From IMG/VR virus record IMGVR_UViG_3300036760_000131, positions 1 to 40,404 of that record: a stretch of 40,404 bases of DNA, one strand, 5' to 3'. Positions within the stretch are counted from its first letter, which is position 1; every line of letters starts with the position of its first letter. Position numbers and translations under genes: made by a program. This stretch comes from a virus. Shown one piece after another: positions 760 to 40,404 of the stretch. Under the pieces are notes generated by a model. It had not been told where the DNA came from, did no database searches, and saw nothing but the letters and a program-made list of their open reading frames with translations.

Positions 760-1245
760 TTATTTCTTTATAGTAGTAAGTGGGGTGGAGAGGGTGGAGA
801 GTAAATCAGTAAACGCAATACAGCCCTGCGTGTGGGCATCTATTCCGTCATCACAGGCAGGACAATAGAATCGTACTTTGGCGATTTCTATTTGAGTGAT
901 GCACTCTTTCCTCCCATCCTCCACACCGGCGTGGTAGAGGGTGGTGAGGGATGATGTAAGCCACGCTTTGATTGCTATCTCGCAATCTTCCTGTGTACTT
1001 TCCTTATAGCAAGTTACACAACCGCTTAGACACCAATCGCCATTATATTTTTTCTCAAACTCCGCTAGTTTAGCTTCTATGAGAGGGTTGGTGTTGGTCA
1101 TACGAGGGGGATGAGTTTGATTTTTCTCATAGTAATCGGTCATGATTTCGATGGTGTTGGGAAGGGAGCGTTTTTCTTTATCCGCGATTTTCTTTATCCG
1201 GGCGTGGACTTTTTCATTGACGAAAATTGCTTTGCGGGTAGTCAT
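760..1245 (-). CDS. Ribbon-helix-helix protein with C-terminal Cys-rich region
   Basis: 161 residues from the ATG at 1243-1245; an in-frame ATG at 1272 would add 9 residues. Residues 3-40 (start TRKAIFVNEKV, then KKIADKEKRSLPNTIEIM) fit a ribbon-helix-helix DNA-binding fold: one beta strand, a helix, then the SLPNT helix start. Downstream are CLSGCVTC and CPACDDGIDAHTQGC, likely metal-binding knuckles. This suggests a transcriptional regulator or antitoxin-like protein, but no toxin partner is adjacent. The first 28 codons share 84 identical bases with the gene at 39958-40236. I chose MTTRK because the paralogue starts at the equivalent position. Confidence 0.8.
   Translation of the reverse strand: MTTRKAIFVNEKVHARIKKIADKEKRSLPNTIEIMTDYYEKNQTHPPRMTNTNPLIEAKLAEFEKKYNGDWCLSGCVTCYKESTQEDCEIAIKAWLTSSLTTLYHAGVEDGRKECITQIEIAKVRFYCPACDDGIDAHTQGCIAFTDLLSTLSTPLTTIKK
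1153..1236 (-). repeat. 84-bp intragenic repeat (RHH N-terminal module), copy A
   Basis: Bases 1153-1236 are identical to 40144-40227 and encode the same N-terminal RHH residues in two genes with unrelated C-termini. The copies are 1,269 bp apart on the circle. Confidence 0.95.
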
Positions 1246-1314
1246 AATGACAATGTAGCACTTACTATACATCTTGCAACTATCTTATCCACTCCTCTCC
1301 CCCTCCATAGGGAG

Positions 1315-5067: not shown

Positions 5068-5209
5068 AGTCGGGGTTTGATTCTAAGAGGGCGAAGGTGG
5101 CGTGCTGTTTTTGATTGCCTAACCACTCCGGCACTCCATACTCATCTGCGCCGGCAAGGACAAGTCCTGCTCGGCCCGCACTACTAATTGTGTGTGCGTA
5201 GCACTTCAT
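5060..5209 (-). CDS. Hypothetical miniprotein (49 aa)
   Basis: Reads MKCYAHTISSAGRAGLVLAG, then EWLGNQKQHATFALLE. It is part of a chain of overlapping tiny genes between the early promoter and the exonuclease (ATGA with the gene at 5206, 8 bp with the gene at 4891). No recognisable motif. Confidence 0.65.
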   Translation of the reverse strand: MKCYAHTISSAGRAGLVLAGADEYGVPEWLGNQKQHATFALLESNPDYA

Positions 5210-5289
5210 ACAATCATCTTCGCCATGACGTAGACAGCCCCGACTAATAAAACAATCAGGGCGAGTTTAAGGACTTCAGTGAAATACAT
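5206..5289 (-). CDS. Single-span membrane peptide (27 aa)
   Basis: MYFTEVLKLALIVLLVGAVY followed by VMAKMIV: one hydrophobic segment with a basic C-terminus. The start overlaps the upstream stop as TGATG, and the stop overlaps the next start as ATGA. An early inner-membrane peptide, perhaps for exclusion or host takeover; function unknown. Confidence 0.6.
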   Translation of the reverse strand: MYFTEVLKLALIVLLVGAVYVMAKMIV

Positions 5290-5390
5290 CATACATTCGC
5301 GTTATAGATTCTGTCTATGCTCTCGGAGTATGACTCTGTCTCTATTTCGGGCATCTCTCTGATAAACTCTAGGTCGCGTGATTCACTCAT
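5289..5390 (-). CDS. Acidic miniprotein, first gene of the leftward operon (33 aa)
   Basis: MSESRDLEFIREMPEIETES then YSESIDRIYNANV. Strongly acidic, with no fold visible. It is the first reading frame after the promoter at 5439-5466 and is chained to the next gene by TGATG. Small acidic early phage proteins often bind host enzymes or mimic DNA; that is only a possibility here. Confidence 0.6.
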   Translation of the reverse strand: MSESRDLEFIREMPEIETESYSESIDRIYNANV

Positions 5391-5413
5391 AATGTATCGC
5401 CCACTACGCAGGG

Positions 5414-5443
5414 TTCTCGATTAACTTAATATATGTGTATAAT
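5414..5443 (+). promoter_or_regulatory. Possible rightward promoter sharing the -10 with the leftward one
   Basis: A perfect TATAAT lies on the plus strand at 5438-5443, inside the small palindrome GTATA-A-TATAC (5437-5447). The -35 is poor (TTCTCG, 18-bp spacer). The first plus-strand gene begins 28 bp downstream of it. The -10 elements of both directions overlap almost exactly, so the two promoters would compete. Confidence 0.4.
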
Positions 5444-5466
5444 ATACTTGCAAAAAATCCTGTCAA
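5438..5466 (-). promoter_or_regulatory. Leftward early sigma70-type promoter
   Basis: On the minus strand: -35 TTGACA (plus 5461-5466, perfect consensus), a 16-bp spacer and -10 TATTAT (plus 5439-5444). A 17-bp spacer with ATTATA is the alternative. Transcription would start near 5432 and enter the gene starting at 5390. It is the best promoter seen in the window and probably drives the early operon. Confidence 0.75.
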
Positions 5467-5471
5467 GCATT

Positions 5472-5609
5472 ATGATGTGGCGTATGGGGAAAACTCGCAA
5501 CGAATTGATTGTAGAACACTATAAAACGGCTAAAAGCCTAGCCGAAACAGCAAAGGTATTTGACTTAACAAGACAAAGGATACATCAAATAATCGTCAAA
5601 TATGGATGA
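5472..5609 (+). CDS. Sigma70 region 4-like helix-turn-helix miniprotein (45 aa)
   Basis: Starts at 5472; 5475 or 5484 (MGKTRNEL) are alternatives. The segment SLAETAKVFDLTRQRIHQII follows the sigma70 region 4.2 pattern (TLEEIAK.FGVTRERVRQI) residue by residue, with the TR.R..QI recognition helix. There is no room for region 2, so it is not a full sigma factor. It could be a repressor or a competitor for promoter -35 recognition. It is the first gene of the only plus-strand cluster and faces the early promoter, so control of that promoter is likely. Confidence 0.65.
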   Translation: MMWRMGKTRNELIVEHYKTAKSLAETAKVFDLTRQRIHQIIVKYG

Positions 5610-5709
5610 CTTGAAAGACATGCTCGCCGCGCTTGGGACAATCGCTCTAATTGGCTTGGCAATCCTTGCAGTTATCTTTGAAGTACAGGATATAATCAGG
5701 TTTTCATGA
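5602..5709 (+). CDS. Single-span membrane miniprotein (35 aa)
   Basis: MDDLKDMLAALGTIALIGLA then ILAVIFEVQDIIRFS. An acidic N-terminus, about 20 hydrophobic residues and a short charged C-terminus. The start overlaps the previous gene by 8 bp, and its stop overlaps the next start. A membrane peptide of unknown role. Confidence 0.6.
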   Translation: MDDLKDMLAALGTIALIGLAILAVIFEVQDIIRFS

Positions 5710-5789
5710 ATGAGATAAAAGAAACATGCGGAATGAGTTGGGCAGAGTGGTTGCGGTGGCTAGTCAATCATCCGCATAAGCCTCAATGA
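5706..5789 (+). CDS. Tiny Trp-rich protein (27 aa)
   Basis: MNEIKETCGMSWAEWLRWLV then NHPHKPQ. Overlaps the previous stop by ATGA. An amphipathic Trp-rich helix could associate with membranes. No known family. Confidence 0.45.
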   Translation: MNEIKETCGMSWAEWLRWLVNHPHKPQ

Positions 5790-5842
5790 TAATGACTCAA
5801 TGGCACAGAGCATTTACAGATAGGACACCACTTCCAACCTGA
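5786..5842 (+). CDS. Possible leader-sized peptide (18 aa)
   Basis: MIMTQWHRAFTDRTPLPT, coupled by ATGA to the gene before it. Too short to judge from composition. It is supported only by the chain of overlaps. Confidence 0.3.
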   Translation: MIMTQWHRAFTDRTPLPT

Positions 5843-5861
5843 TTCCATGATGGAATAATAC

Positions 5862-5999
5862 ATGAAAATGAGAATAAACCCTGACCTCACCAAAGAAGAA
5901 CTTGAGACCCTGACACGAGTAATGAAGGAGATGAATACGAGACCTGAATCAATCCACAAGGAGAGGCTTGATAGAGACAGCGTAATTTACTATCCTTAG
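5862..5999 (+). CDS. Small charged protein (45 aa), last gene of the rightward cluster
   Basis: MKMRINPDLTKEELETLTRV, then MKEMNTRPESIHKERLDRDS, ending VIYYP. Helical and charged. The TAG stop at 5997-5999 runs directly into a structured element starting at 5999. Function unknown. Confidence 0.6.
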   Translation: MKMRINPDLTKEELETLTRVMKEMNTRPESIHKERLDRDSVIYYP

Positions 6000-6058
6000 G
6001 AGTGCCCGTATCGGGCGGCGTAAGTTTGCGGCAAACAGCGTACGACCGTGCGCTCTCC
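5999..6058 (+). other. Compact RNA-like structured element after the rightward genes
   Basis: Hairpin GCCCG-TAT-CGGGC (6004-6016). A second hairpin has CGTA (6019-6022) pairing TACG (6041-6044), GG/CC outside an A bulge, and an apical GTTTG-CGG-CAAAC (6024-6036). An outer GGAG (5999-6002) can pair with CTCC (6055-6058). Too short for a tRNA. It could be a 3' UTR structure or a processing site. Confidence 0.45.
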
Positions 6059-6116
6059 TATGTAAAACCCCGCCCATGTTCTTCTACCATTGAGTAGAGA
6101 GCCAAGGGCTGGGGAC

Positions 6117-6137
6117 AGTCCCTGCAAAGGGACTTTT
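6117..6137 (+). terminator. Hairpin followed by TTTT (weak terminator candidate)
   Basis: AGTCCC-TGCAAA-GGGACT is a perfect 6-bp stem with four T residues beginning at its last base. It lies 118 bp after the last rightward gene. It may partly terminate the minigene transcript or be a domain of a longer RNA. An additional hairpin TCTAC/GTAGA lies just upstream at 6083-6098. Confidence 0.4.
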
Positions 6138-6166
6138 CTCATGTATTCTGTGAAGGTAGTTCTTTG

Positions 6167-6405
6167 AAATCACTGTACTGTGATGGTGCAAAAGGAGAGA
6201 CACTTAGTCGGGAGGCTAGGCACTGAAGTGCACAATTCCAGTTGCTTCCCGATGATTATACGAGGGTTGATAGTCCCTTGGCTCGTGGTAACTGGCCGCT
6301 GTCTTTAATGACGAAGAACGCCATAAAACCCCTGTGAGGTGACCATACCGGAATAGCTTTTGGCGAAAACCGTAAAGAAATCCTCACTCACAGTACAGTG
6401 TTTTT
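6167..6405 (+). ncRNA. Putative structured noncoding RNA (about 239 nt)
   Basis: Closed by a perfect 12-bp helix, CACTGTACTGTG (6171-6182) with CACAGTACAGTG (6389-6400). Three further A-T pairs lie beyond a T.T mismatch, then TTTTT at 6401-6405, which favours the plus strand. Inside: a 9-bp helix TCGGGAGGC (6208-6216)/GCTTCCCGA (6244-6252) with one G.U pair; a GCAC-TGAA-GTGC hairpin (6220-6231); ACGAG (6260-6264)/CTCGT (6282-6286). CCAGTT (6238-6243) can pair with AACTGG (6290-6295), which would be a pseudoknot. CGCC-AT-AAAA (6319-6328) can pair with TTTTGGCG (6358-6365). No open frame. It does not match RNase P, tmRNA or 6S motifs I know. Confidence 0.6.
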
Positions 6406-6417
6406 AAGCAGATACAC

Positions 6418-6445
6418 AAAAGCCCCCGTTTTTATTAACGGGGGC
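6418..6445 (-). terminator. Intrinsic terminator of the leftward late operon
   Basis: Perfect 7-bp stem GCCCCCG (6422-6428)/CGGGGGC (6439-6445) with a 10-base loop. On the minus strand it is followed by TTTT (plus AAAA 6418-6421). Outer ACACAA (6414-6419) and TTGTGT (6448-6453) can extend the stem. It lies 43 bp after the last lysis gene. The rest of 6000-6488 has no gene and is described by the neighbouring RNA-like entries. Confidence 0.85.
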
Positions 6446-6488
6446 GATTGTGTACTTAGCCACTAGAATTGGTTTCTAATGGTCGTCA

Positions 6489-7115
6489 TCAGGGACTAGC
6501 CGATGACGGGGGGTTCGTCGTATAAAAGCCAATAAGTGTTCTGCTCAATTCTTTCCAAGTAAACAATCGTTCTCGAATGGTACAGGGTGCACCCGATCCG
6601 TTCCCCTCATACCCAATAATTCCATCAACCGTAACCCGTACTTTGTAGGCAAGGTGCCTTTGACCGTTTGGATACTCAAAAATCATCACTTGACCCCAAG
6701 GCATAGGGACGTTTGGGATAAAGGTGTCGGCATCCCCACGGGGCAAGTCGGGGACTTTAAGCCGTACCGTGGCCGTACAAGAGCAAACCGTCCATTCATA
6801 GATATACCCGTCTTTAATGCGTTTAGCAGCCCATTCTAGGGCGCAGGAGGTATCGTAGGCACAGTCGTCTGATACTTCAGGGTGCCATTTCCCTGATATC
6901 TGTACTATCCCCCTATCGTTTGAGCCATTGGCATTGTTAGTAAGTGTAGGGTTCCAATTACTCTCCGAGGTGATGAGGTTGGAGAACGTCGTAGTGCTGA
7001 TTCCATGTGAAACGGCTATCCTATTCGCCATAGCCCTGTAATCAGGCTCTACGGGGCTTGTGGGGGCTTCAGGGGCTACTACAGCCGCCTCCACGACCGA
7101 AACAACCTCTGGCAA
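6489..7115 (-). CDS. Endolysin: lytic transglycosylase with C-terminal domain
   Basis: 208 residues from a TTG start at 7113-7115, chosen because GGGAGGT sits 9 bases upstream. Residues 1-25 are a Val/Pro/Ala-rich lead. Residues 26-105 form an SLT-type lysozyme-like domain: catalytic Glu in ITSESNW (E51), then GIVQIS, then DTSCALEWAAKRIKDG. The C-terminal part (about 130-200: MPWGQVMIFEYPNGQRHLAY... GFY) resembles a CHAP-like or papain-like domain without clear catalytic residues. It cleaves glycan strands of peptidoglycan. No in-frame ATG exists upstream, although a hydrophobic in-frame stretch does. Last gene of the late operon. Confidence 0.85.
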   Translation of the reverse strand: MPEVVSVVEAAVVAPEAPTSPVEPDYRAMANRIAVSHGISTTTFSNLITSESNWNPTLTNNANGSNDRGIVQISGKWHPEVSDDCAYDTSCALEWAAKRIKDGYIYEWTVCSCTATVRLKVPDLPRGDADTFIPNVPMPWGQVMIFEYPNGQRHLAYKVRVTVDGIIGYEGNGSGAPCTIRERLFTWKELSRTLIGFYTTNPPSSASP

Positions 7116-9139: not shown

Positions 9140-10321
9140 TCACCCTATCCACGATGTACCGTTGAAATACTTAGGTTCTTTAGTTACCCATGTACTACCA
9201 TTAAAATATTTCAATGGTTTAATTGTCCACGTTGTCCCGTCCCAATATTTAACTATCCCTACGGGGGCTGAAGGTGAGGTAGAGGGCGATGTAGAGGGAG
9301 AAGCAGAAGGCGAGGTACTGGCACTGGTACTTGGACTACTTGATGCCGAGGTGGAGGGGCTGGTACTAGGACTCGTGGAAGGAGAAGTACTAGGAGATGT
9401 ACTGGGGCTTGGACTTGAAGATGCACTCGTTGAAGGGGAAGTGGAAGGACTTGTAGAGGGTGACGTTGACGGTGATGTTGAGGGGCTTGGCGAAGAACTA
9501 GCACTGGTACTTGGAGAGGTAGAAGGTGAAGTGCTGGGTGAGGGTGAGGAACTCGGACTCGTAGAAGCACTTGTAGAAGGGCTTTTGCTAGGAGACGTTG
9601 AGGGACTTGTTGAAGGACTAGGCGAGGAGCTTGCGGATGTACTAGGTGAAGTCGATGGTGAAGTTGAAGGAGATGGGCTGGAACTAGGGGATGTGGATGT
9701 ACTAGTAGAGGGGCTTGTGCTTGGGCTTGTAGAGGGTGAGGTACTTGGTGAAGGCGAAGAAGAAGCTGAGGTACTTGGACTCGTTGATCGAGACGTACTT
9801 GGGGAAGGGGAAGATGAGGGTGAAGTAGACGGGGATGTGGATGGAGAGGTACTGGGAGAAGGGCTAGAGCTGGGAGATGTTGAAGTAGAAGCAGAGGGAC
9901 TCGTAGAAGGGGAAGTTGAAACCGATGTACTAGGAGATGTAGAAGGGCTTGTACTTGGGCTAGTTGAAGGCGAAGGACTGCTTGAAGCAGAGGTGGAGGG
10001 GCTGGTAGACGGGGACGTTGAAGGACTGGGTGAACTACTTGGACTTGTGCTAGGAGAGTTAGAAGGGGATGTAGAAGGACTAGGACTAGACGATGCTGAG
10101 GTACTGGGAGAAGTGGAAGGGCTTGTGGAAGGACTAGTGGAAGGCGAGGGAGAAGATGAGGGGGAAGTAGAGGGGGAGGTTGAAGGGCTTGTGCTAGGAC
10201 TGGTTGAAGGGCTAGTACTTGGAGAGGTTGAAGGTGAGGCAGAGGGGGACGAAGAACCTACCGAACCTGTAATTGCACTTTTTATCAGTACCCATCCTGT
10301 TGTACGCTTAAATCGCGCCAT
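9140..10321 (-). CDS. Mucin-like Ser/Thr/Pro repeat fibre protein
   Basis: 393 residues. A short head (MARFKRTTGWVLIKSAITGS) leads to about 320 residues of SPSTSPS/SASPS-type units made almost only of Ser, Pro and Thr. The C-terminal 40 residues contain three copies of a 'KYFNG(T/S)(T/S)W' motif (KYWDGTTWT, KYFNGSTWV, KYFNGTSWI), a putative tip repeat seen in tail-associated phage proteins. The long segment would be extended and is an obvious O-glycosylation substrate. Codons differ between repeats, so the tract is old or under codon diversification. Likely a tail or fibre component. Confidence 0.8.
   Translation of the reverse strand: MARFKRTTGWVLIKSAITGSVGSSSPSASPSTSPSTSPSTSPSTSPSTSPSTSPSSSPSPSTSPSTSPSTSPSTSASSSPSPSTSPSNSPSTSPSSSPSPSTSPSTSPSTSASSSPSPSTSPSTSPSTSPSTSVSTSPSTSPSASTSTSPSSSPSPSTSPSTSPSTSPSSSPSPSTSRSTSPSTSASSSPSPSTSPSTSPSTSPSTSTSTSPSSSPSPSTSPSTSPSTSASSSPSPSTSPSTSPSKSPSTSASTSPSSSPSPSTSPSTSPSTSASSSPSPSTSPSTSPSTSPSTSPSTSASSSPSPSTSPSTSPSTSPSTSPSTSASSSPSTSASTSPSASPSTSPSTSPSAPVGIVKYWDGTTWTIKPLKYFNGSTWVTKEPKYFNGTSWIG
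9259..10250. repeat. Degenerate repeat tract encoding Ser/Pro/Thr units
   Basis: About 1 kb of 6- to 12-base phase-conserved units, with synonymous variation between copies. The same tract produces a spurious long open frame of Glu/Val/Gly/Leu on the plus strand. Confidence 0.85.
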
Positions 10322-12959: not shown

Positions 12960-12968
12960 ATTATACCA
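12960..12968 (-). promoter_or_regulatory. Extended -10 promoter candidate TGGTATAAT
   Basis: Minus-strand TGGTATAAT matches the extended -10 consensus (TGn plus TATAAT). It overlaps the stop of the glycosyltransferase and would give a leader of about 22 nt to the structural gene starting at 12931. No good -35, which extended -10 promoters do not need. Confidence 0.4.
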
Positions 12969-13908
12969 CTTTCTGGAGCGCATCTTCTCCCCAACCTGCT
13001 ACCGGCATGAATTTTTCCACCAGCCATCTCACTGAGTGGATCTGTTTAGGGTGTTTCTTGCCCCAGTATTTCTCCTTAATGTAGTCTTTGGTCTTGTGTA
13101 CATCCTTATCTCTTATCTTATAGGGGAACCCGAAGTCCCCACCTTGAGTGCGAAACATGTGACTTTGCCATGTATCATGACAAATCAAAATCCGCAATCC
13201 TGACAACCACGCCGCACAAGCCACCTCTAAGCCCTGATTACCCCACGAACCTGCCCTCTCGTCACACAACTCGTATTTCCAGTAGTTGTGGCGGGAAGCC
13301 ATAAAAAAACTTCCTTGTAGTGACATAGACTCTGTATAGCCGAACTTCTCTTTCATCTCTGTATATTCTGGTCGGCGAGTGTACTCTTTGTTGTACTGAA
13401 AATGAGGTTCTGTATCAAAACAGTACGAGGTGCTTTGCGGGTTAGTCTTGGATATCCAAACTATCTCTTTTTCAGTTGGCTCCCCGCAGTCTTTGCACAG
13501 CCCCGACGGGCTTTGGTATCTTCTATGCCCGTTTTTGCAAAGCCAATTAAAACAATGCAAGTTTTTCATAATTGGCGCAGCAACTACGTCCTTACCAACT
13601 TTGTCGAAAAACTTAAACATCTTTAAGTCAAAGTCTTGGTCTACGGCGCAGTGTGCATCTATTTTGGCTACAAACTCTGCCTTTGAAAGCCGTACAAGTT
13701 GGTTCTGCATAGCTCGTTGGCCAATAGATTCTGAAACATGGAATATCTTTACTCGTGGATGGTCTTGAATGGGTTGAGCAGGCCAATAGCCGTCCAGCCC
13801 AACCAAAATTTCAGATTGTTCACCTGTATGCTCGAGCAGGTCTTGGATGGTACGTCCCAAAAACTCCTCATTTCTCGCGGGAATGACAAATGAAAGTCTA
13901 TATCGCAT
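12961..13908 (-). CDS. GT2-family glycosyltransferase with inserted zinc ribbon
   Basis: 315 residues. GT-A fold: RLSFVIPARNEEFLGRTIQDLL at the start, EILVGLDGYW, then KIDAHCAVD as the metal-binding D-x-H (DXD equivalent) and an acceptor-side GSWGNQGLEVAC segment, as in GalNAc-transferase-like GT2 enzymes. Between them a Cys-rich insert, LCKNGHRRYQSPSGLCKDCG, forms a likely zinc ribbon. It should move a sugar from a nucleotide donor. Last gene of the glycan island on the transcript. The start overlaps the HNH gene by 11 bp. Confidence 0.85.
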   Translation of the reverse strand: MRYRLSFVIPARNEEFLGRTIQDLLEHTGEQSEILVGLDGYWPAQPIQDHPRVKIFHVSESIGQRAMQNQLVRLSKAEFVAKIDAHCAVDQDFDLKMFKFFDKVGKDVVAAPIMKNLHCFNWLCKNGHRRYQSPSGLCKDCGEPTEKEIVWISKTNPQSTSYCFDTEPHFQYNKEYTRRPEYTEMKEKFGYTESMSLQGSFFMASRHNYWKYELCDERAGSWGNQGLEVACAAWLSGLRILICHDTWQSHMFRTQGGDFGFPYKIRDKDVHKTKDYIKEKYWGKKHPKQIHSVRWLVEKFMPVAGWGEDALQKVV

Positions 13909-14347
13909 GGTATTGTATTTCTGCCTTACTTCTTGCCATTAGAGCATCTTTTAATTCTAAAAATCTCCCCAAGTATATTTTTTTATACTTTAACGTAAAA
14001 GTGGCTACCCATCGATTTTTATACCAAGAAATTCCATTATGACCCGAAGTATTATTTTTAGAGAGTTTGCAATTTAAGGTATTTTGCCTCTGGGAAACAC
14101 TTCTAAGATTAGACTTTCTGTTATCTAGCTTATTGCGGTTGATGTGGTCAGTGACTAATCCAGCGGGGGTTTCATTCAAAAGTCTGTGCATCAAAATTCG
14201 GTGTTTATTCTTTCGTCCTCCAGCATCTCTTACTGCGTATCCCTGTTGGTCACTCCACCACTTCCATTGGCTAAGCAACTCAAAGTCTCCGTCATCCACT
14301 ATCGCAAACTTCCTTTTGGTGAGAGGTATTTTCTTCATAAGTTCCAT
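13898..14347 (-). CDS. HNH homing endonuclease with AP2-like DNA-binding domain
   Basis: 149 residues (ATG at 14338 is an alternative). The HNH core is RILMHRLLN...VTDHINRNKLDNRKSNLR (His-Asn-Asn/His pattern), followed by NNTSGHNGISWYKNRWVATF and KIYLGRF, which is the AP2/NUMOD-type recognition domain. This is a free-standing selfish endonuclease that cuts intron- or endonuclease-minus relatives. It is wedged between two glycan genes with short overlaps on both sides, so it arrived without breaking them. Confidence 0.9.
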   Translation of the reverse strand: MELMKKIPLTKRKFAIVDDGDFELLSQWKWWSDQQGYAVRDAGGRKNKHRILMHRLLNETPAGLVTDHINRNKLDNRKSNLRSVSQRQNTLNCKLSKNNTSGHNGISWYKNRWVATFTLKYKKIYLGRFLELKDALMARSKAEIQYHAI

Positions 14348-14859
14348 TTTGATACATCAATAACATTACTTACCACAGAAGTATAAGGTAGACATTCTTT
14401 CCAGTCATAACGATATTTAAATTTCGCCCACACTTGTTCATATCCGTAGTGGTCTTTTTCCCCAGCTCTGTTTCTAACATCTGGCTCGGTATCGTGGAGG
14501 ATAATAATATCAGCGTTTGTAAACTTAATTGTATCATCCCCCCTGCGGTGAGGATTTTTCCCTCGGTCTGACGTGTGGTCTATAAAAACAACTGACCAGT
14601 GGCGGTTGTAGTCTGCCTCGCTCCAGTCTTCCACTTTCTTTATCTTGTGTGTCCAACTTTGAAACTGACGAGCATAACGATAATATTCAATATCGCTTTC
14701 GTAGGTAACCAAATTTCTTCCTTGACAGAGCCAGTGAAGGATGGGGGTGCTATAAAATCCCGCACCCATTTCACACACATCTCCTGTGGTTAAAGGGATG
14801 ACCTTGAGGAGTGTGGGGATATGTGTACCTGCTTGTTTGTGATTAGGGTTGATTTTCAT
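14335..14859 (-). CDS. Class I SAM-dependent methyltransferase-like protein
   Basis: 174 residues from ATG 14857-14859; the frame has an upstream TTG at 14886. VCEMGAGFYSTPILHWL is the glycine-rich SAM loop, YESD the acidic residue after strand 2 and VFIDHTSD the strand-4 motif. It resembles small FkbM/Methyltransf_24-type enzymes that modify sugars or peptides. Surrounded by sugar enzymes, so sugar O-methylation is likely. The target is not shown by the sequence. Confidence 0.75.
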   Translation of the reverse strand: MKINPNHKQAGTHIPTLLKVIPLTTGDVCEMGAGFYSTPILHWLCQGRNLVTYESDIEYYRYARQFQSWTHKIKKVEDWSEADYNRHWSVVFIDHTSDRGKNPHRRGDDTIKFTNADIIILHDTEPDVRNRAGEKDHYGYEQVWAKFKYRYDWKECLPYTSVVSNVIDVSKWNL

Positions 14860-14875
14860 ACGTCTAGGAATATTC

Positions 14876-15724
14876 TCATAACGCAAAGGGTTTAATATAG
14901 TCCGGTAGATGACGTGTTGATTTCCAACCCAAGAGTCGCGTTTTAGTGGTGTCTACACTGGAGTCCATACGATTGCCTTGTAGCTCTGGTAGCATCACGA
15001 TCTCTCCTCCGAACATCTGTGCTACCTCTAAAATAGAGTACGCTTCGTCGCTACCAATACCAAACTCATCGCCGACCCCCTTCTCCCCCACCAACACTAG
15101 TCCGTCAATAATATCATCAACATGCGTAAAGTTCCTTTTCTGTGTCCCAGGGGTTACGACGCAGATAGGTTCATTTGCGAGCCTTTTCTGTTTGAATATC
15201 TCTATGACAGTTCCGTATGGTGCGGCACGTTCTCCAGGACCGTAGACACTGTAAAAGTAGGTAATCGCATAGGGAAGGTCATACCAGGTGGCGTAGTTGC
15301 GTATTAGCTCCGAGTTAGTCGCCTTCATCCATGTGTAGGGGGCTAGGTTGCGTCCCATGCCTCCATCAGCAAACTTGGTAGAGGAACCAGCATAGACGAG
15401 TTTACACTTCTTCTCTCGCCAATACTCAATGACGCTGAAAGTTCCGGCGACATTCATTTTCCATACGAGCGCAGGTTCTCGGAGGCTTGTCTCGATACGC
15501 GGGTACTCTCCTAGGTGGTAAATCAAGTCAGGTGTCTCTGGGACGAGTGTGGCAATATCTGTGTTGCTACCTTTGCGGTAGTCTACCCCCTCAACGTGGT
15601 TGGACTTCGTTCCAGTAAAGTAGTTGTCGAGTACGATGACCCGATGCCCGTCCTTAACGAGCCTTCTACAGAGATTTGACCCTACGAATCCCGCGCCTCC
15701 TGTGCATAAAATGAGCTTAGACAT
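14876..15724 (-). CDS. NAD-dependent sugar epimerase/dehydratase (extended SDR)
   Basis: 282 residues from the ATG at 15722-15724 (a GTG start at 15742 would add 6). GGAGFVGSN gives the NAD-binding G9-x2-G12-x2-G15. Catalytic Ser is in YAGSST (114-115) and Tyr130-x3-Lys134 is in APYTWMKATNSEL. FTHVDDIIDGLVL is the usual epimerase signature near the end. It acts on a nucleotide sugar (UDP- or GDP/dTDP-hexose), for example as a GalE-like 4-epimerase. It supplies the donor for the neighbouring glycosyltransferases. Confidence 0.88.
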   Translation of the reverse strand: MSKLILCTGGAGFVGSNLCRRLVKDGHRVIVLDNYFTGTKSNHVEGVDYRKGSNTDIATLVPETPDLIYHLGEYPRIETSLREPALVWKMNVAGTFSVIEYWREKKCKLVYAGSSTKFADGGMGRNLAPYTWMKATNSELIRNYATWYDLPYAITYFYSVYGPGERAAPYGTVIEIFKQKRLANEPICVVTPGTQKRNFTHVDDIIDGLVLVGEKGVGDEFGIGSDEAYSILEVAQMFGGEIVMLPELQGNRMDSSVDTTKTRLLGWKSTRHLPDYIKPFAL

Positions 15725-15731
15725 AAGTTGA

Positions 15732-16868
15732 TTATACTTCACGCGGCGGGATGGGGATGAGGTAGCGGTAGGCGTTGCCTGTCTTCTTTTTAATGTCCTC
15801 TATGTACTCGTAGGCAAAGACAACAAGGAGGTCGGGGTGAAACGCCCCAAGATATTCTTTAGGCACGATAGGGATGTGCTTGCCGGGACTTGTGCGACCT
15901 TGCTTCAAGGTGCTGTCGTCAACGATAAAAGGTATGAGGTCGGTGCCAATGTCACCGAAGTTCGTGATGGTCGAAACTCTGGCAGGGCAACTGTAGCCTG
16001 CCACACTGACACCTTCTGCCTTGTATTCCTCTAGCTTCTTCTTGAAATCAGCAACGTAGCGTGCGGATGTATCACGAAACTCCTCAAGAGCTTGGAGTGT
16101 TAGTGTTTCTTCAACGAAACTTTGACCAGTCCCATGCTTCACGGTAACGCGCAGTGAACCGCCGTGAGGTTCGATGTGCTCTACGTCAGCGACGTGCATA
16201 CCATGTCTCTCGAATAGCTTTACCAGTGAAGTGATGGAGTAGTAGAAGGGGCGGTCAAAGTAGAACCTCTCGAACTGGACGTTTTTAATGATGTCCCCAA
16301 GGTACTCAACTTCAATGATGAAGCTCCCGTCCTCACTCATAAGATTCTTCACGTCCTCAATCACTTGGTGAGGGTCTTCTAGGTGCGTGAAGACACTAGA
16401 ACAGACGATGACGTCTGCTTTCCCGTGCTTGGCGACTATCTTCTCAACCGTCGGGGCGTCGAAAAACGAGACAATGGTCATAAGTCCCTCATCGTTTGCG
16501 AGCTTTGAGACGTTCACCGATGGCTCAATGCCTACGGCTGGAACACCCAACTTTTTAAGGGGGCGCAGCAATATGCCGTCGTTGCTTCCAATATCCACAA
16601 CGAGTTTCGCGTTCTTCAAGTCTTCGGCGAGTGCGTCAAAGTGCCGTACAAGCCCTTGGTTGACCGATGAGAGGTAGTAGTAGTCCTCGAACATACGTTC
16701 ACGGGAAACCATTTCTCCGAGCTGTACGTTCTTACAGTCGGGGCAGAAGAACACCTGCATCGGGAAGAAGTCTTCTGGCTCCCCTGGTCTGGGGTACTTA
16801 TTGGCGAGTGGTTGTCGGCCTAAGTCGAGGAATTCTGTGGCGGTTTTGTAGCAGAGACGGCATTTCAT
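15732..16868 (-). CDS. Sugar C-methyltransferase (TylC3/NovU-like)
   Basis: 378 residues from the ATG at 16866-16868; the open frame upstream overlaps another gene. Order: N-terminal zinc-binding domain (MKCRLCYKTATEFLDLG, then FFCPDC), SAM domain with VVDIGSNDGILLRPL and VIVCSSVFTHLEDP, and a C-terminal domain with DLLVVFAYEYI. This three-domain order is that of deoxysugar C-methyltransferases making branched sugars. It probably methylates an NDP-keto sugar made with the adjacent SDR enzymes. Unusual in a phage. Confidence 0.85.
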   Translation of the reverse strand: MKCRLCYKTATEFLDLGRQPLANKYPRPGEPEDFFPMQVFFCPDCKNVQLGEMVSRERMFEDYYYLSSVNQGLVRHFDALAEDLKNAKLVVDIGSNDGILLRPLKKLGVPAVGIEPSVNVSKLANDEGLMTIVSFFDAPTVEKIVAKHGKADVIVCSSVFTHLEDPHQVIEDVKNLMSEDGSFIIEVEYLGDIIKNVQFERFYFDRPFYYSITSLVKLFERHGMHVADVEHIEPHGGSLRVTVKHGTGQSFVEETLTLQALEEFRDTSARYVADFKKKLEEYKAEGVSVAGYSCPARVSTITNFGDIGTDLIPFIVDDSTLKQGRTSPGKHIPIVPKEYLGAFHPDLLVVFAYEYIEDIKKKTGNAYRYLIPIPPREV

Positions 16869-16869
16869 A

Positions 16870-17505
16870 TTACTTAAATTTAGTAATAAGTAAGTCGGCC
16901 TTCCCCCATTTTGGAATATCGTAGGCTTTGACAGGACCCCAGTCTTTCCAGTGAATCCTCTGTCGTTCTTCACTCGCACCATCGTGATTTATTTGTATGA
17001 CCCCAATAGTTGAGTACCACTCGACACACTTTCTTTTAGTTGTCCCCAATACCTTGTCTATTCTCCAACGTCCCAATTCTCCAACATAAGGCCAACCGTC
17101 AGGGTATTTTGTGAATCGTTCCTCTAGGGCCTCGATTGCTAGTTCTCTGGGGGCTATCAGGGTGCAATTAGACACTCTGTTGCGCCAGTTATAGGTTGGT
17201 TTCCACCAAGTAAACAACGCCCACCTATGCTGGTTATAAGCGAACTCATCCATCTTAGGGCGAAACTGGTTGAAGTGTTCAGGTGGATAAAGTACATCGT
17301 CTTCTATGACAGCTATAAACGGTGTGGTGGCCTTCTTGCAACCCTCTAAAAGTCTCCTATAAATCATCTGTTCTCCCATCTTTTTCTCATCAAATAAATC
17401 AATTATAGGATAGGGAAGGTTTCCAATCTGCTCGGTATGAAAATCCACCCATTTGTCTGAGAGCTTGTCGGCGTGGATATACAAAAGCGTGAGGTCGTTC
17501 GTCAT
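16870..17505 (-). CDS. GT-A-type glycosyltransferase (211 aa)
   Basis: LTLLYIHADKLSDKW at the start, EGCKKATTPFIAVIEDDVLYP in the middle (EDD as the metal-binding DXD) and PYVGELGRWRIDKVLGTT as the acceptor side. It looks like a small galactosyl-type or LPS-type transferase. The start is coupled to the SDR gene upstream (ATGA at 17502). Confidence 0.75.
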   Translation of the reverse strand: MTNDLTLLYIHADKLSDKWVDFHTEQIGNLPYPIIDLFDEKKMGEQMIYRRLLEGCKKATTPFIAVIEDDVLYPPEHFNQFRPKMDEFAYNQHRWALFTWWKPTYNWRNRVSNCTLIAPRELAIEALEERFTKYPDGWPYVGELGRWRIDKVLGTTKRKCVEWYSTIGVIQINHDGASEERQRIHWKDWGPVKAYDIPKWGKADLLITKFK

Positions 17506-18005
17506 ACACTCACTACTCCATCGCGTACAGTGATTATACTCCCACTCTTGAACTCCCCCTCCATGATTCGCACCACAGCCTTTGCTACCTCTTCAGGTTT
17601 TTGTGGATTCCCCTCAAGTTCGAGAGATCGCCACATCTTTGTATCAGTTGGCCCAGGGCATAGTGCGTAGAATTGCAGTTCGGGATGCTTTCGTGCCATT
17701 GTTTCTGCGTAAGAATTGAGTGCCGCTTTTGACGCAGAATATATGGGGAATTTAGTATTGCCTTTAATCCCTGAAGTTGAAGATATATAAACCACTCCCA
17801 CCTTTATCCGAGGCAGTAGTTTCAGAGTCGTCTCAATGCACAGAAGTGTATTAGTATCAAAAGTATCTTTCACGCGCATCTCGTCCAATATGCCTTGTGC
17901 AAAAATGAGCCAATCAATCTCTCCGTCTTCGACAAATTCATGTCCCGCAAGCTCTTTAATGGTAGAACCGATTCCTCCGCTCTGGCCAAAGAGTTTCAAA
18001 CGCAT
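17502..18005 (-). CDS. Short-chain dehydrogenase/reductase
   Basis: 167 residues, short for the family (usually about 250). MRLKLFGQSGGIGSTIKELA is the cofactor loop, VVYISSTSG has the catalytic Ser, and FPIYSASKAALNSYAETMAR has Tyr-x3-Lys. The core is complete but strands 2-3 are compressed. Likely a keto-sugar reductase in the nucleotide-sugar pathway of the island. Confidence 0.85.
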   Translation of the reverse strand: MRLKLFGQSGGIGSTIKELAGHEFVEDGEIDWLIFAQGILDEMRVKDTFDTNTLLCIETTLKLLPRIKVGVVYISSTSGIKGNTKFPIYSASKAALNSYAETMARKHPELQFYALCPGPTDTKMWRSLELEGNPQKPEEVAKAVVRIMEGEFKSGSIITVRDGVVSV

Positions 18006-18006
18006 A

Positions 18007-18759
18007 TTACTTCTTATAATACGGGTTTCTTGATGTCTTTCTAGTTAGTGTGTGAAAGAGTCCTTTTGGGTCAGCGTCCACGTCACCGCCCTCACAATAC
18101 TTTCCACTGGGAAACAGAAGAATGTTTGCCCGATGCTTATACCCCACTATATCATCAAAATCTCGTACCTTTCCTGCCTTGTGTAGTTCATCCCATCGCC
18201 TTGAAAAGTTACCATCCTCTCGTTGGGGGTAGGGTTTGGTAAGTATCAACCTCTCGTTATAGCCCTTCATTACATTGATGAAGAAGTCTTTTCGAGTAGC
18301 GTACTGATTTCTATGAGGATTGAGAAAGGTGCCGTACTTCTTGATTCGGTGGTCGGATAAACCATACTCCCTCAGTACCTCTAGGTCTTGGGAGATATTC
18401 CCTTCTTCGTCCAAGATTGCAAACGCTCGGTTGAAGCGCATGAAATCCCCGTTAAAGTTTCGTACAAGTTCAATTATTTCCTTCGTGATGATGTGGTCAA
18501 GGTCAGCAAAGATAATGTATTCTCCCTTGGCTTGAGGAGCGGTGGTGTTGCGGGCTAAGGATGAAGTCCACGGACGCTTATCGTTGGTTTGAATGATACG
18601 AAGCCACGGACGAGGTTCAGCCTCTATTGGCGGGTCGCTCCCGTCATCAACTATGATTACCTCGGTGTCCTCTGGTATTCCTATCTTGTCGTAGTGTAGG
18701 AGCTGTCTGCGAACTATCTCGTGTGAGTTAAGTACAGGATGTATAATTGTGACACGCAT
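18007..18759 (-). CDS. GT2-family glycosyltransferase
   Basis: 250 residues. N-terminal RVTIIHPVLNSHEIV, EVIIVDDGSDPP (first aspartates), SSLARNTTAPQAKGEYIIFADLDHI (DLD as DXD), then a downstream substrate domain (RREDGNFSRRWDELHKAG-like). A complete GT-A fold. First transcribed gene of the glycan island, directly after the collagen-like protein with a 1-bp gap. Confidence 0.85.
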   Translation of the reverse strand: MRVTIIHPVLNSHEIVRRQLLHYDKIGIPEDTEVIIVDDGSDPPIEAEPRPWLRIIQTNDKRPWTSSLARNTTAPQAKGEYIIFADLDHIITKEIIELVRNFNGDFMRFNRAFAILDEEGNISQDLEVLREYGLSDHRIKKYGTFLNPHRNQYATRKDFFINVMKGYNERLILTKPYPQREDGNFSRRWDELHKAGKVRDFDDIVGYKHRANILLFPSGKYCEGGDVDADPKGLFHTLTRKTSRNPYYKK

Positions 18760-22651: not shown

Positions 22652-24106
22652 CTAATCAATAATGATTATTTCATCTCCATTTGGGGCTATAGTTATGGTA
22701 GTGGGAAGAGGGGAATTTATCCCAGACATTCCTTTCACCGCATCATTCCACCGTTGCAGACTAGCCTTTATCTGATTAAGATTTTCCTTGAAACTTTCAA
22801 CCGATTGCCCTTGGTCAAGACCCGCAAGAGCAGAAGTCAAAAGTGCTAGCTCTCTATCGCTCACGTTACCAAGCGCACCACCAGTCTTGCTGGCTTCACG
22901 CATAGCGGTCAGTTCGCCAAAAGCTATATTTGCTTTAAGGCTATCGAGATCAGCCTTAAAGTCCCTCGCAGGCGATGTTGGAATAAATGTAGTAAGAGAG
23001 CCGAATCCGACCACAGCCCCATTTACTCGTCCGAGAAGATTATCAACTTCCTGTGTAATCCGAGTCTGTCGTTCTGCTTGGTAAGGAGACACACCCGTAA
23101 TGCCAGGAATAGTACCCATTAAAGAAATATCAATTTTCAGTTTTTCATTTATCAATCGTTGATTTTCAAGGTCTAGGAGTGATTTCTGTTTAGCTATTGG
23201 GTCAGTGAGGTACTGTCCAAGTAATTGGAGCACCTGTTGTGGTGTCTTCCCTTCGGTTTGTCTGATGAGTTCAATCGGAGCGCCATTTTTTATAGCATCA
23301 ACCTGCCAGCCTTGAAGCAGTTTTGCATCAGCCTCTTGTTGGTTAATTTGTCGTGAGCGTGCATCCTGTATATCCTTCGCTCTTTGTGCCCTGTTTTTGT
23401 CAGCCAAGGAATACGCAGGGCTTTTGAGTATCAAGTCAAGATTTTCTTTAGCAACAGCTATCTGTTCTTTTATGGGGTCGAACTTTTGCGCTACGGCCCT
23501 GTCTACGAGGTCAAGAGCAGTAGTGAGGTTTCCTCTACTTGCTTCGAGTAGGGAGGCCGTGGAGAGGGCCTGAATAGCGTTGTTGCGTAATGCGGCGGTT
23601 TGGTGTGGTCGCAATCCTCCTTCGGTGATGCCTCTACCTGTTGCGTCTTGCTGTAATTGGAGTGGTATAGCAAGGGCTTCGTTTTGTAGTCCTTTAAGTC
23701 GGGCTGAAAGGTCTGATTGGGTTTTGGTGAGGTCGGTTATGCCTTGTGTTTTTTCCTGTTCAGCGCGATAGTCTGATTCACCAATAAGTTGCTTTTCGAG
23801 CGCGGTGATAACATCAAAGCCACCCTGTGCTTGCTGTTCTGGCTCGGTGAGGGTGAGTTCAGCATTCAAACCGGCGACGGGGTAGTTATTATAGGGTTGT
23901 GGACTGCCAAAGTTTGTCGTTGCAGGAGGATTCAGGGTGGCACTTGATATGGTAGGTGGGGTTGCAATAGTTGTGGTGTTGGTACCTCCGATATCGTATT
24001 GGCTCCCATTGTTTTGAATAGATACTCCGCTTCCTAACTGGGCCGCTGACTGAAAGGCGGCTTTTTGTTCAGGGGTGAATCCGCTTATGTCGAGTGGGGT
24101 TACCAT
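22652..24106 (-). CDS. Internal head or tail protein with conserved 'GGALGNVSD' motif (484 aa)
   Basis: Asn/Gln-rich N-terminus, then extended helices (REQ, KENL repeats). The segment AMREASKTGGALGNVSDREL followed by LLTSALAGLDQG is a motif I recall in many phage structural proteins of unknown role. The gene lies next to the polyvalent protein, suggesting a co-packaged or ejection-channel protein. Confidence 0.7.
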   Translation of the reverse strand: MVTPLDISGFTPEQKAAFQSAAQLGSGVSIQNNGSQYDIGGTNTTTIATPPTISSATLNPPATTNFGSPQPYNNYPVAGLNAELTLTEPEQQAQGGFDVITALEKQLIGESDYRAEQEKTQGITDLTKTQSDLSARLKGLQNEALAIPLQLQQDATGRGITEGGLRPHQTAALRNNAIQALSTASLLEASRGNLTTALDLVDRAVAQKFDPIKEQIAVAKENLDLILKSPAYSLADKNRAQRAKDIQDARSRQINQQEADAKLLQGWQVDAIKNGAPIELIRQTEGKTPQQVLQLLGQYLTDPIAKQKSLLDLENQRLINEKLKIDISLMGTIPGITGVSPYQAERQTRITQEVDNLLGRVNGAVVGFGSLTTFIPTSPARDFKADLDSLKANIAFGELTAMREASKTGGALGNVSDRELALLTSALAGLDQGQSVESFKENLNQIKASLQRWNDAVKGMSGINSPLPTTITIAPNGDEIIIID

Positions 24107-39957: not shown

Positions 39958-40236
39958 TTATTTTCGACGACCCATAGCAATATCCCCAACATAATCAGCC
40001 ACCTCATCAACCGCCTCACTAACCTTTTTCGGCATACGCCTAGAATGGGTTGCCCAATCCATCAGAAAATCAAATATATCCTGATGTTTTCTTTGTTTAG
40101 GAGTTTGCTTTTGTTTCTTTCTCATACAGTATCTAGGGGGTTGGGTGTTGGGAAGGGAGCGTTTTTCTTTATCCGCGATTTTCTTTATCCGGGCGTGGAC
40201 TTTTTCATTGACGAAAATTGCTTTGCGAATACTCAT
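39958..40236 (-). CDS. Fused RHH N-terminal fragment plus new C-terminus (92 aa)
   Basis: Residues 3-30 are the RHH start shared with the gene at 760-1245. Then the frame enters a different protein: TQPPRYCMRKKQKQTPKQRK, followed by HQDIFDFLMDWATHSRRMPK and VDEVADYVGDIAMG. The RHH second helix is missing, so DNA binding is doubtful. An internal ATG at 40125 may be the original start of the C-terminal part. ATG overlaps the upstream stop as ATGA. Confidence 0.65.
   Translation of the reverse strand: MSIRKAIFVNEKVHARIKKIADKEKRSLPNTQPPRYCMRKKQKQTPKQRKHQDIFDFLMDWATHSRRMPKKVSEAVDEVADYVGDIAMGRRK
40144..40227 (-). repeat. 84-bp intragenic repeat (RHH module), copy B
   Basis: Identical to 1153-1236. 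Confidence 0.95.
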
Positions 40237-40404
40237 GGTTTGATAACGGGCGCGTTTTCAAGCAGTTCAATAAGTTTGTCGGCCAAGATTTCGTATGCCC
40301 CTGCCCCTGCCCCTCTCCCTGCCCATGTCCCTGCCCATGCCCCTGTCCCTGCCCATGTCCCTGCCCATGCCCATGCCCCTGCCCATATCCATGCCCCTGC
40401 CCAT
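40233..40404 (-). CDS. C-terminal part of the Trp-Ala-Gly repeat protein
   Basis: Continues the protein of 1-758 across the junction: repeat residues from about 206, then [20 protein letters not shown] and TGA at 40233-40235. Residues 206-252 are encoded in both ends of the window and count once. Confidence 0.85.
   Translation of the reverse strand, partial: WAGAWIWAGAWAWAGTWAGTGAWAGTWAGRGAGAGAYEILADKLIELLENAPVIKP
40261..40404 (+). repeat. Terminal redundancy, right copy
   Basis: Repeats 1-144 with one substitution (A at 40387 versus C at 127). Confidence 0.95.

What the first reader, a model, noticed from the sequence alone, without database searches (positions are those of the whole stretch)
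6167..6405. A pseudoknot-capable structured RNA at the end of the rightward transcript
A perfect 12-bp closing helix, internal helices of 9 and 5 bp, a possible 6-bp pseudoknot and a T5 end fall inside a gene-free region between converging operons. The arrangement is unlike common housekeeping RNAs I know. Possible roles: packaging RNA, host RNA mimic, antisense regulator of the lysis genes or riboregulator. This is inference from base pairing read by eye.
Basis: partly seen in the sequence, partly recalled or inferred. Interest (0 to 1): 0.72.

Follow-up and report, generated by a model that had tools for sequence, protein, structure and literature searches.

The report
Orphan structured RNA region in phage
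A phage genome has about 410 bases without genes that, copied into RNA, would fold into two elaborate shapes; the folding is more stable than chance, but no relative was found to prove the RNA is real or say what it does.

Summary
The helices are really there. Arms 6171-6183 and 6388-6400 give a perfect 12-13 bp closing helix. Inside lie a 10-bp hairpin, a 6-bp hairpin and a possible 6-bp pseudoknot, and T5 follows at 6401-6405. No ORF over 48 aa overlaps the stretch. The 239 nt fold better than all 200 shuffles (z -3.4), but nearly all the excess comes from the closing helix (interior z -1.3). The pseudoknot is near chance. The finding is also only half of the structure. Just upstream, 5997-6134 holds a four-way junction, a strong hairpin and a terminator hairpin with TTTT (5990-6140, z -4.4). 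Together, 5990-6410 is among the best-folding gene-free DNA in the genome, better on the + strand, at the 3' end of a short rightward operon facing the lysis operon. Rfam, tRNA/tmRNA, BLAST and two covariance models over about 45 related phage records found no homologue, so covariation is untestable. There is no antisense match of 12 nt or more to leftward mRNAs. No reverse transcriptase, integrase or resolvase was found. Best reading: the structured, noncoding 3' end of a small early transcript, probably serving termination and possibly a stable ncRNA. Packaging RNA, host-RNA mimicry and antisense control of lysis have no support.

The parts
5421..5476 (+). rightward promoter-like sites (TTAACT-16-TATACT; TTGCAA-17-TATGAT), back to back with a strong leftward one
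   Evidence: consensus scan; 6 sites found against 3.1 expected, so individually weak
5439..5466 (-). leftward promoter-like site TTGACA-16-TATTAT (11 of 12), head of the leftward early operon
5484..5609 (+). 41-aa ORF resembling sigma-70 region 4 HTH, first gene of the short rightward operon
   Evidence: Pfam Sigma70_r4 E 4.5e-5, just below the curated cut-off
5602..5999 (+). three further small ORFs (35 aa hydrophobic, 27 aa, 45 aa)
   Evidence: ORF list; no families
5997..6060 (+). RNA A, four-way junction: closing stem 5997-6002/6055-6060, hairpins 6004-6016, about 6017-6036 and 6037-6054
   Evidence: pair probabilities 0.67-0.99 in context; z -2.57
6068..6114 (+). RNA A, long irregular hairpin
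   Evidence: z -4.42, 0 of 200 shuffles; probabilities mostly above 0.9
6117..6138 (+). RNA A, terminator-like hairpin AGUCCCU-GCAA-AGGGACU followed by a U-rich tail
6165..6406 (+). RNA B (the finding): closed multibranch RNA
   Evidence: z -3.38
6171..6183 (+). 5' arm of the closing helix; also a near-palindrome TCACTGTACTGTGA (6170-6183)
6388..6400 (+). 3' arm of the closing helix, followed by TTTTT 6401-6405
6207..6253 (+). 10-bp hairpin (6207-6216/6244-6253) with small inner hairpin 6220-6231
   Evidence: pair probabilities 0.83-1.0 for the main stem, about 0.62 for the inner one
6238..6295 (+). possible H-type pseudoknot 6238-6243/6290-6295, stacking directly on the 10-bp hairpin
   Evidence: duplex -6.0 kcal/mol, cost of freeing the strands 2.3 kcal/mol; abutting run P 0.035
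6261..6280 (+). 6-bp hairpin
   Evidence: pair probabilities 0.88-1.0
6334..6387 (+). 6-bp helix (6334-6339/6382-6387) with weaker inner pairs
   Evidence: pair probability 0.81
6422..6445 (-). terminator-like site of the converging endolysin/late operon (stem plus TTTT on the minus strand)

Best explanation
Bases 5990-6410 are the noncoding, highly structured 3' end of a short rightward (probably early) transcript that starts near 5420-5480 and carries four tiny genes. It has two modules: RNA A (four-way junction, long hairpin, terminator hairpin with U-tract, 5997-6138) and RNA B (a multibranch RNA closed by a 12-13 bp helix and ended by U5, 6165-6406). The best-supported job is to stop rightward transcription before it meets the converging late/lysis operon and to leave a folded, exonuclease-resistant 3' end. 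Because a terminator needs neither a four-way junction nor a 240-nt closed multibranch fold, I infer that one or both modules also persist as a stable ncRNA that binds a protein or RNA partner. Shown: the helices, their better-than-chance stability, the + strand preference, the absence of longer ORFs, the terminator motifs and the operon geometry. Inferred: transcription, stability, and any trans-acting role.
For: 5990-6410 folds with z -4.09 on + and -2.96 on -. 5990-6140 has z -4.37 on + and -2.93 on -. RNA B has z -3.38 on + and -3.24 on -, with MFE -79.3 against -72.5 kcal/mol. In 240-nt windows over the genome RNA B ranks 5th and the 6001 window 8th of 676. No ORF over 48 aa overlaps it. 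Terminator-like sites in 5200-6600 are 5 against 1.0 expected, including 6117-6134 (+) and 6445-6422 (-). Divergent promoter-like sites lie at 5421-5476, and a small sigma-region-4-like gene at 5484.
Against: No homologue by any route, so no covariation. The excess stability of RNA B rests almost wholly on its closing helix. The pseudoknot is near chance. There is no expression evidence. The 6117-6138 terminator would stop most transcription before RNA B unless it leaks or RNA B has its own promoter, and none was seen just upstream of it.
Confidence: 0.48

Rival explanations
1. Only terminators matter. The structure is a stack of intrinsic terminators and fortuitous hairpins between converging operons, and RNA B is untranslated spacer with a chance inverted repeat.
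For: Terminator-like sites 5 against 1.0 expected. RNA B interior is unremarkable (z -1.29). A 13-bp inverted repeat of this spacing is expected 0.18 times per genome. No conservation seen.
Against: The four-way junction and the 6068-6114 hairpin are not terminators and fold better than shuffles. Both modules fold better on the + strand than on the - strand. The chance inverted repeat would have to fall in the one gene-free stretch.
Confidence: 0.25
2. RNA B's arms are DNA sites, not an RNA helix: two copies of a near-palindromic operator (TCACwGTACwGTGA) about 218 bp apart, bound by a phage repressor or bridged by a DNA loop.
For: Each arm is itself a near-palindrome (TCACTGTACTGTGA at 6170-6183; TCACAGTACAGTGT at 6388-6401) and the motif with at most 2 mismatches occurs nowhere else. 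Spacing is close to 21 helical turns.
Against: No copy lies at the divergent promoters 5421-5476 where a repressor should bind. No promoter-like site lies next to either arm. It does not explain the U5 or the neighbouring RNA A.
Confidence: 0.1
3. An invertible or mobile DNA segment bounded by inverted repeats (20-nt arms, 18 matching).
For: Inverted repeat 6164-6183/6388-6407, 90% over 20 nt, 204 bp between, a size range seen in invertible promoters (own knowledge).
Against: No tyrosine integrase or serine resolvase family match in the genome, with controls ringing. No promoter-like site inside on either strand. No target duplication seen and no second copy.
Confidence: 0.03
4. A trans-acting regulator or mimic as first proposed: antisense of lysis genes, packaging RNA, or a host-RNA mimic.
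For: Structured, noncoding, next to the lysis genes.
Against: No complementarity of 12 nt or more to leftward mRNAs; three 11-mers, about 4 expected. Ordinary terminase large subunit. No Rfam, tRNA or tmRNA match.
Confidence: 0.08

Closest known systems
GOLLD and ROOL RNAs (phage/prophage ornate ncRNAs, Rfam)
   Same: Noncoding, elaborately folded RNA in phage genomes with multibranch structure and possible pseudoknots, function unknown (PMC12286853)
   Different: GOLLD members often exceed 800 nt, and both are often near tRNA islands (PMC12286853). Here about 140 and 240 nt, no tRNA, no Rfam match.
Intrinsic (rho-independent) terminators between convergent operons
   Same: GC-rich hairpin plus U-tract at 6117-6138; converging operon has its own at 6445-6422
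   Different: The four-way junction, the long hairpin and the 240-nt closed fold exceed what a terminator needs.
phi29-type packaging RNA (pRNA)
   Same: Small structured phage RNA whose ends pair in a helix (own knowledge)
   Different: About double the length; this phage has an ordinary terminase; no Rfam match.
Retron or DGR noncoding RNAs
   Same: In retrons the ends pair to close a structured RNA (own knowledge)
   Different: No reverse transcriptase in the genome.

Membership tests
any Rfam 15 family | score at or above the family's gathering threshold | tested here: not met
   0 matches in the whole window; in 5300-6520 with lax filters only SNORA44 on the minus strand at E 5.4
tRNA / tmRNA | cloverleaf with consensus arms, or tRNA-like domain with tag | tested here: not met
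   ARAGORN 0 genes; the cloverleaf-like RNA A has 3-4 nt loops
GOLLD / ROOL | match to the family covariance model | tested here: not met
GOLLD / ROOL | neighbourhood of tRNA genes | tested here: not met
   no tRNA in the window
intrinsic terminator (6117-6138, +) | GC-rich stem directly followed by U-tract | tested here: met
   7 bp, 4 GC, 4-nt loop, then UUUCU after a stem ending in U
intrinsic terminator (6117-6138, +) | RNA 3' ends map there | not testable with these tools
   needs Term-seq
structured ncRNA (general) | compensatory changes in homologues | not testable with these tools
   no homologue found
structured ncRNA (general) | folding energy lower than composition-matched shuffles | tested here: met
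   weaker for RNA B interior
antisense regulator of lysis genes | extended complementarity to target mRNA | tested here: not met
   no run of 12 nt or more
phi29 packaging RNA | phi29-type packaging motor and terminal protein | tested here: not met
   ordinary terminase large subunit, phrog_2 E 2.3e-30
retron / DGR RNA | adjacent reverse transcriptase | tested here: not met
   PF00078 absent in the genome, controls ring
invertible DNA segment | site-specific recombinase | tested here: not met
   PF00589 and PF00239 absent

The most novel reading that the evidence does not exclude
RNA A and RNA B are a new class of phage ncRNA (an about 410-nt two-domain RNA, domain B pseudoknotted and closed end to end) made early in infection and acting in trans on a host complex.
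Probability: 0.15. Interest if true: 0.7.

Novelty: new member of a known kind. Interest (0 to 1): 0.33.

Why it matters
Phages carry few well-understood structured RNAs, and several known ones (GOLLD, ROOL) still lack a function. If real, this would be a small, defined, testable RNA locus in an uncultivated phage lineage, one that Rfam and sequence search cannot see because no relatives are available. As it stands it is one sequence with good folding statistics and no comparative proof.

Tried and rejected
Rfam at gathering and at lax thresholds; ARAGORN; blastn against phage and plasmid collections; blastn of the whole region in 34 related records: the best hit (G012) lies in a coding frame that I read as a capsid C-terminus, so chance. 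Searches with TerL, endolysin (single and profile), exonuclease, SSB-like and 267-aa neighbour proteins brought only distant phages (TerL 44-70%), with no conserved neighbourhood. Single-sequence covariance models R1 (RNA A junction) and R2 (RNA B) over about 0.8 Mb of relatives and Flavobacterium phage FpV9 gave nothing; the best weak R1 hit (L044/L012) is inside an ORF. Two exact-motif scans of IMG/VR gave one hit (L072) inside an ORF. The gene-poor stretch near the endolysin of G034 is also structured, but neither model matches it. A 15-nt match of RNA B to gene 22652-24106 is in sense orientation, so not antisense. The first sliding-window run timed out and was replaced. The origin idea was dropped: no sharp GC-skew turn at the locus.

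Full report
WHAT WAS CLAIMED. A pseudoknot-capable structured RNA at 6167-6405, at the end of a rightward transcript between converging operons.

CHECK OF THE OBSERVATION. All named elements exist. The two 13-nt arms 6171-6183 and 6388-6400 are perfectly complementary. The minimum free energy fold of 6167-6405 on the plus strand is -79.3 kcal/mol against -62.7 +/- 4.9 for 200 dinucleotide-preserving shuffles (z -3.38, none as good). Pair probabilities are close to 1 for the closing helix, the 10-bp hairpin 6207-6253 and the hairpin 6261-6280, and lower elsewhere. Two cautions apply. The interior without the closing helix is only slightly better than shuffles (z -1.29). And a 6-bp match between the hairpin loop and its surroundings occurs in 46% of shuffles, though one that directly abuts the hairpin, as here, occurs in 3.5%. 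Keeping the pseudoknot strands free costs 2.3 kcal/mol and the isolated 6-bp duplex gives -6.0, so the pseudoknot is possible but not established. The 13-bp inverted repeat is expected 0.18 times per genome at this spacing and is the only one.

The stretch just upstream folds more convincingly: 5990-6140 has z -4.37. It comprises a four-way junction (5997-6060, z -2.57), a long irregular hairpin (6068-6114, z -4.42) and a seven-pair hairpin followed by a U-rich tail (6117-6138), an intrinsic-terminator motif. The whole 5990-6410 has z -4.09 on the plus strand and -2.96 on the minus strand. In genome-wide comparisons, 150-nt windows starting at 6001 and 6376 are at the top of 1074 (the 6376 window is largely the minus-strand terminator), and among 240-nt windows RNA B ranks 5th and the 6001 window 8th of 676. 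No ORF above 48 aa overlaps the stretch on either strand.

CONTEXT. Most genes of this virus record run leftward: the late operon from the terminase at 35.6 kb to the lysozyme-like gene 6489-7115 (SLT_3, E 5.8e-5, just below its curated cut-off), and an early set that includes a DnaD-like helicase loader and an exonuclease. The only rightward unit I recognise is 5.4-6.4 kb. Back-to-back promoter-like sites at 5421-5476 (+) and 5466-5439 (-) are followed by a 41-aa gene resembling sigma region 4 (E 4.5e-5, also just below cut-off), three smaller ORFs and then the structured stretch. The late operon has its own minus-strand terminator-like site at 6445-6422, so the two transcripts need not overlap. 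The record carries a 126-nt exact repeat at both ends, which suggests a circular assembly.

SEARCH FOR RELATIVES. Rfam gave no match, ARAGORN none, blastn none in 50,697 phage and 72,556 plasmid records. Thirty relatives by large terminase (44-70% identity) and twelve loci by the lysozyme-like protein were fetched. DNA search over the whole records of the first 34 and covariance models built from the single sequence over the loci and larger pieces held found only the window itself. The same models found nothing in Flavobacterium phage FpV9, one of the nearest named phages by terminase at 46.5%. A 17-mer and a 20-mer scan of IMG/VR gave one hit, inside a coding frame. The early and lysis neighbours are themselves not conserved in these phages.

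MECHANISM. Geometry and motifs support termination of rightward transcription ahead of the converging late operon. Two U-tracts (about 6134-6138 and 6401-6405) each follow a stem, though the second stem is long-range. Termination alone does not explain a four-way junction plus a 240-nt closed multibranch fold, so I infer that at least one module is kept as a folded RNA. No step beyond folding and motif presence has been shown. Antisense control of lysis is not supported: there is no run of 12 nt or more complementary to leftward mRNAs, and the three 11-mers found are about what chance gives. A retron/DGR RNA is made very unlikely by the lack of a reverse transcriptase, and an invertible segment by the lack of recombinases. 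The arms are near-palindromic (TCACTGTACTGTGA), so a pair of protein-binding DNA sites is a live minor rival, but the motif is absent from the divergent promoters and the rest of the genome.

COMPARISON. What it resembles in kind: the ornate phage ncRNAs GOLLD and ROOL, whose functions are also unknown and which often sit near tRNA islands (PMC12286853). It is not a member: no model match, no tRNA genes, and much shorter. What it works like with most confidence: an intrinsic terminator (6117-6138).

VERDICT. Observation confirmed and extended upstream; interpretation partly supported. It is an orphan candidate ncRNA with good folding statistics in one sequence and no comparative or expression evidence.

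Noticed in passing
5997-6138: Four-way junction, strong hairpin and terminator hairpin directly upstream of the finding; folds more significantly than the finding itself.
   Followed up: yes
5484-5609 (+): 41-aa protein that is little more than a sigma-70 region-4-like helix-turn-helix (Pfam E 4.5e-5), first gene of the rightward unit.
   Followed up: partly
6099-6108 and 6275-6284: 10-nt perfect complementarity between RNA A (GAGCCAAGGG) and a loop region of RNA B (CCCTTGGCTC), and an 11-nt 91% match beside it: a possible A-B interaction or switch.
   Followed up: no
1-144 and 40261-40404: 126-nt exact repeat at both record ends lying in a 12-18 nt tandem repeat: probably a circular assembly.
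   Followed up: partly
9140-10321 (-): 393-aa ORF consisting largely of SPST-type repeats, next to structural genes.
   Followed up: no
12961-18759 (-): Cluster of glycosyltransferases, a C-methyltransferase and an NAD-dependent epimerase inside the late operon: sugar-modifying genes.
   Followed up: no
leftward genes, whole window: Only 11 of 40 leftward genes have a Shine-Dalgarno-like motif upstream, a hint about the host's translation signals.
   Followed up: no
760-1272 (-) and 39958-40236 (-): Two genes share the same about 30-residue N-terminus (KAIFVNEKVHARIKKIADKEKRSLPN) and then diverge.
   Followed up: no
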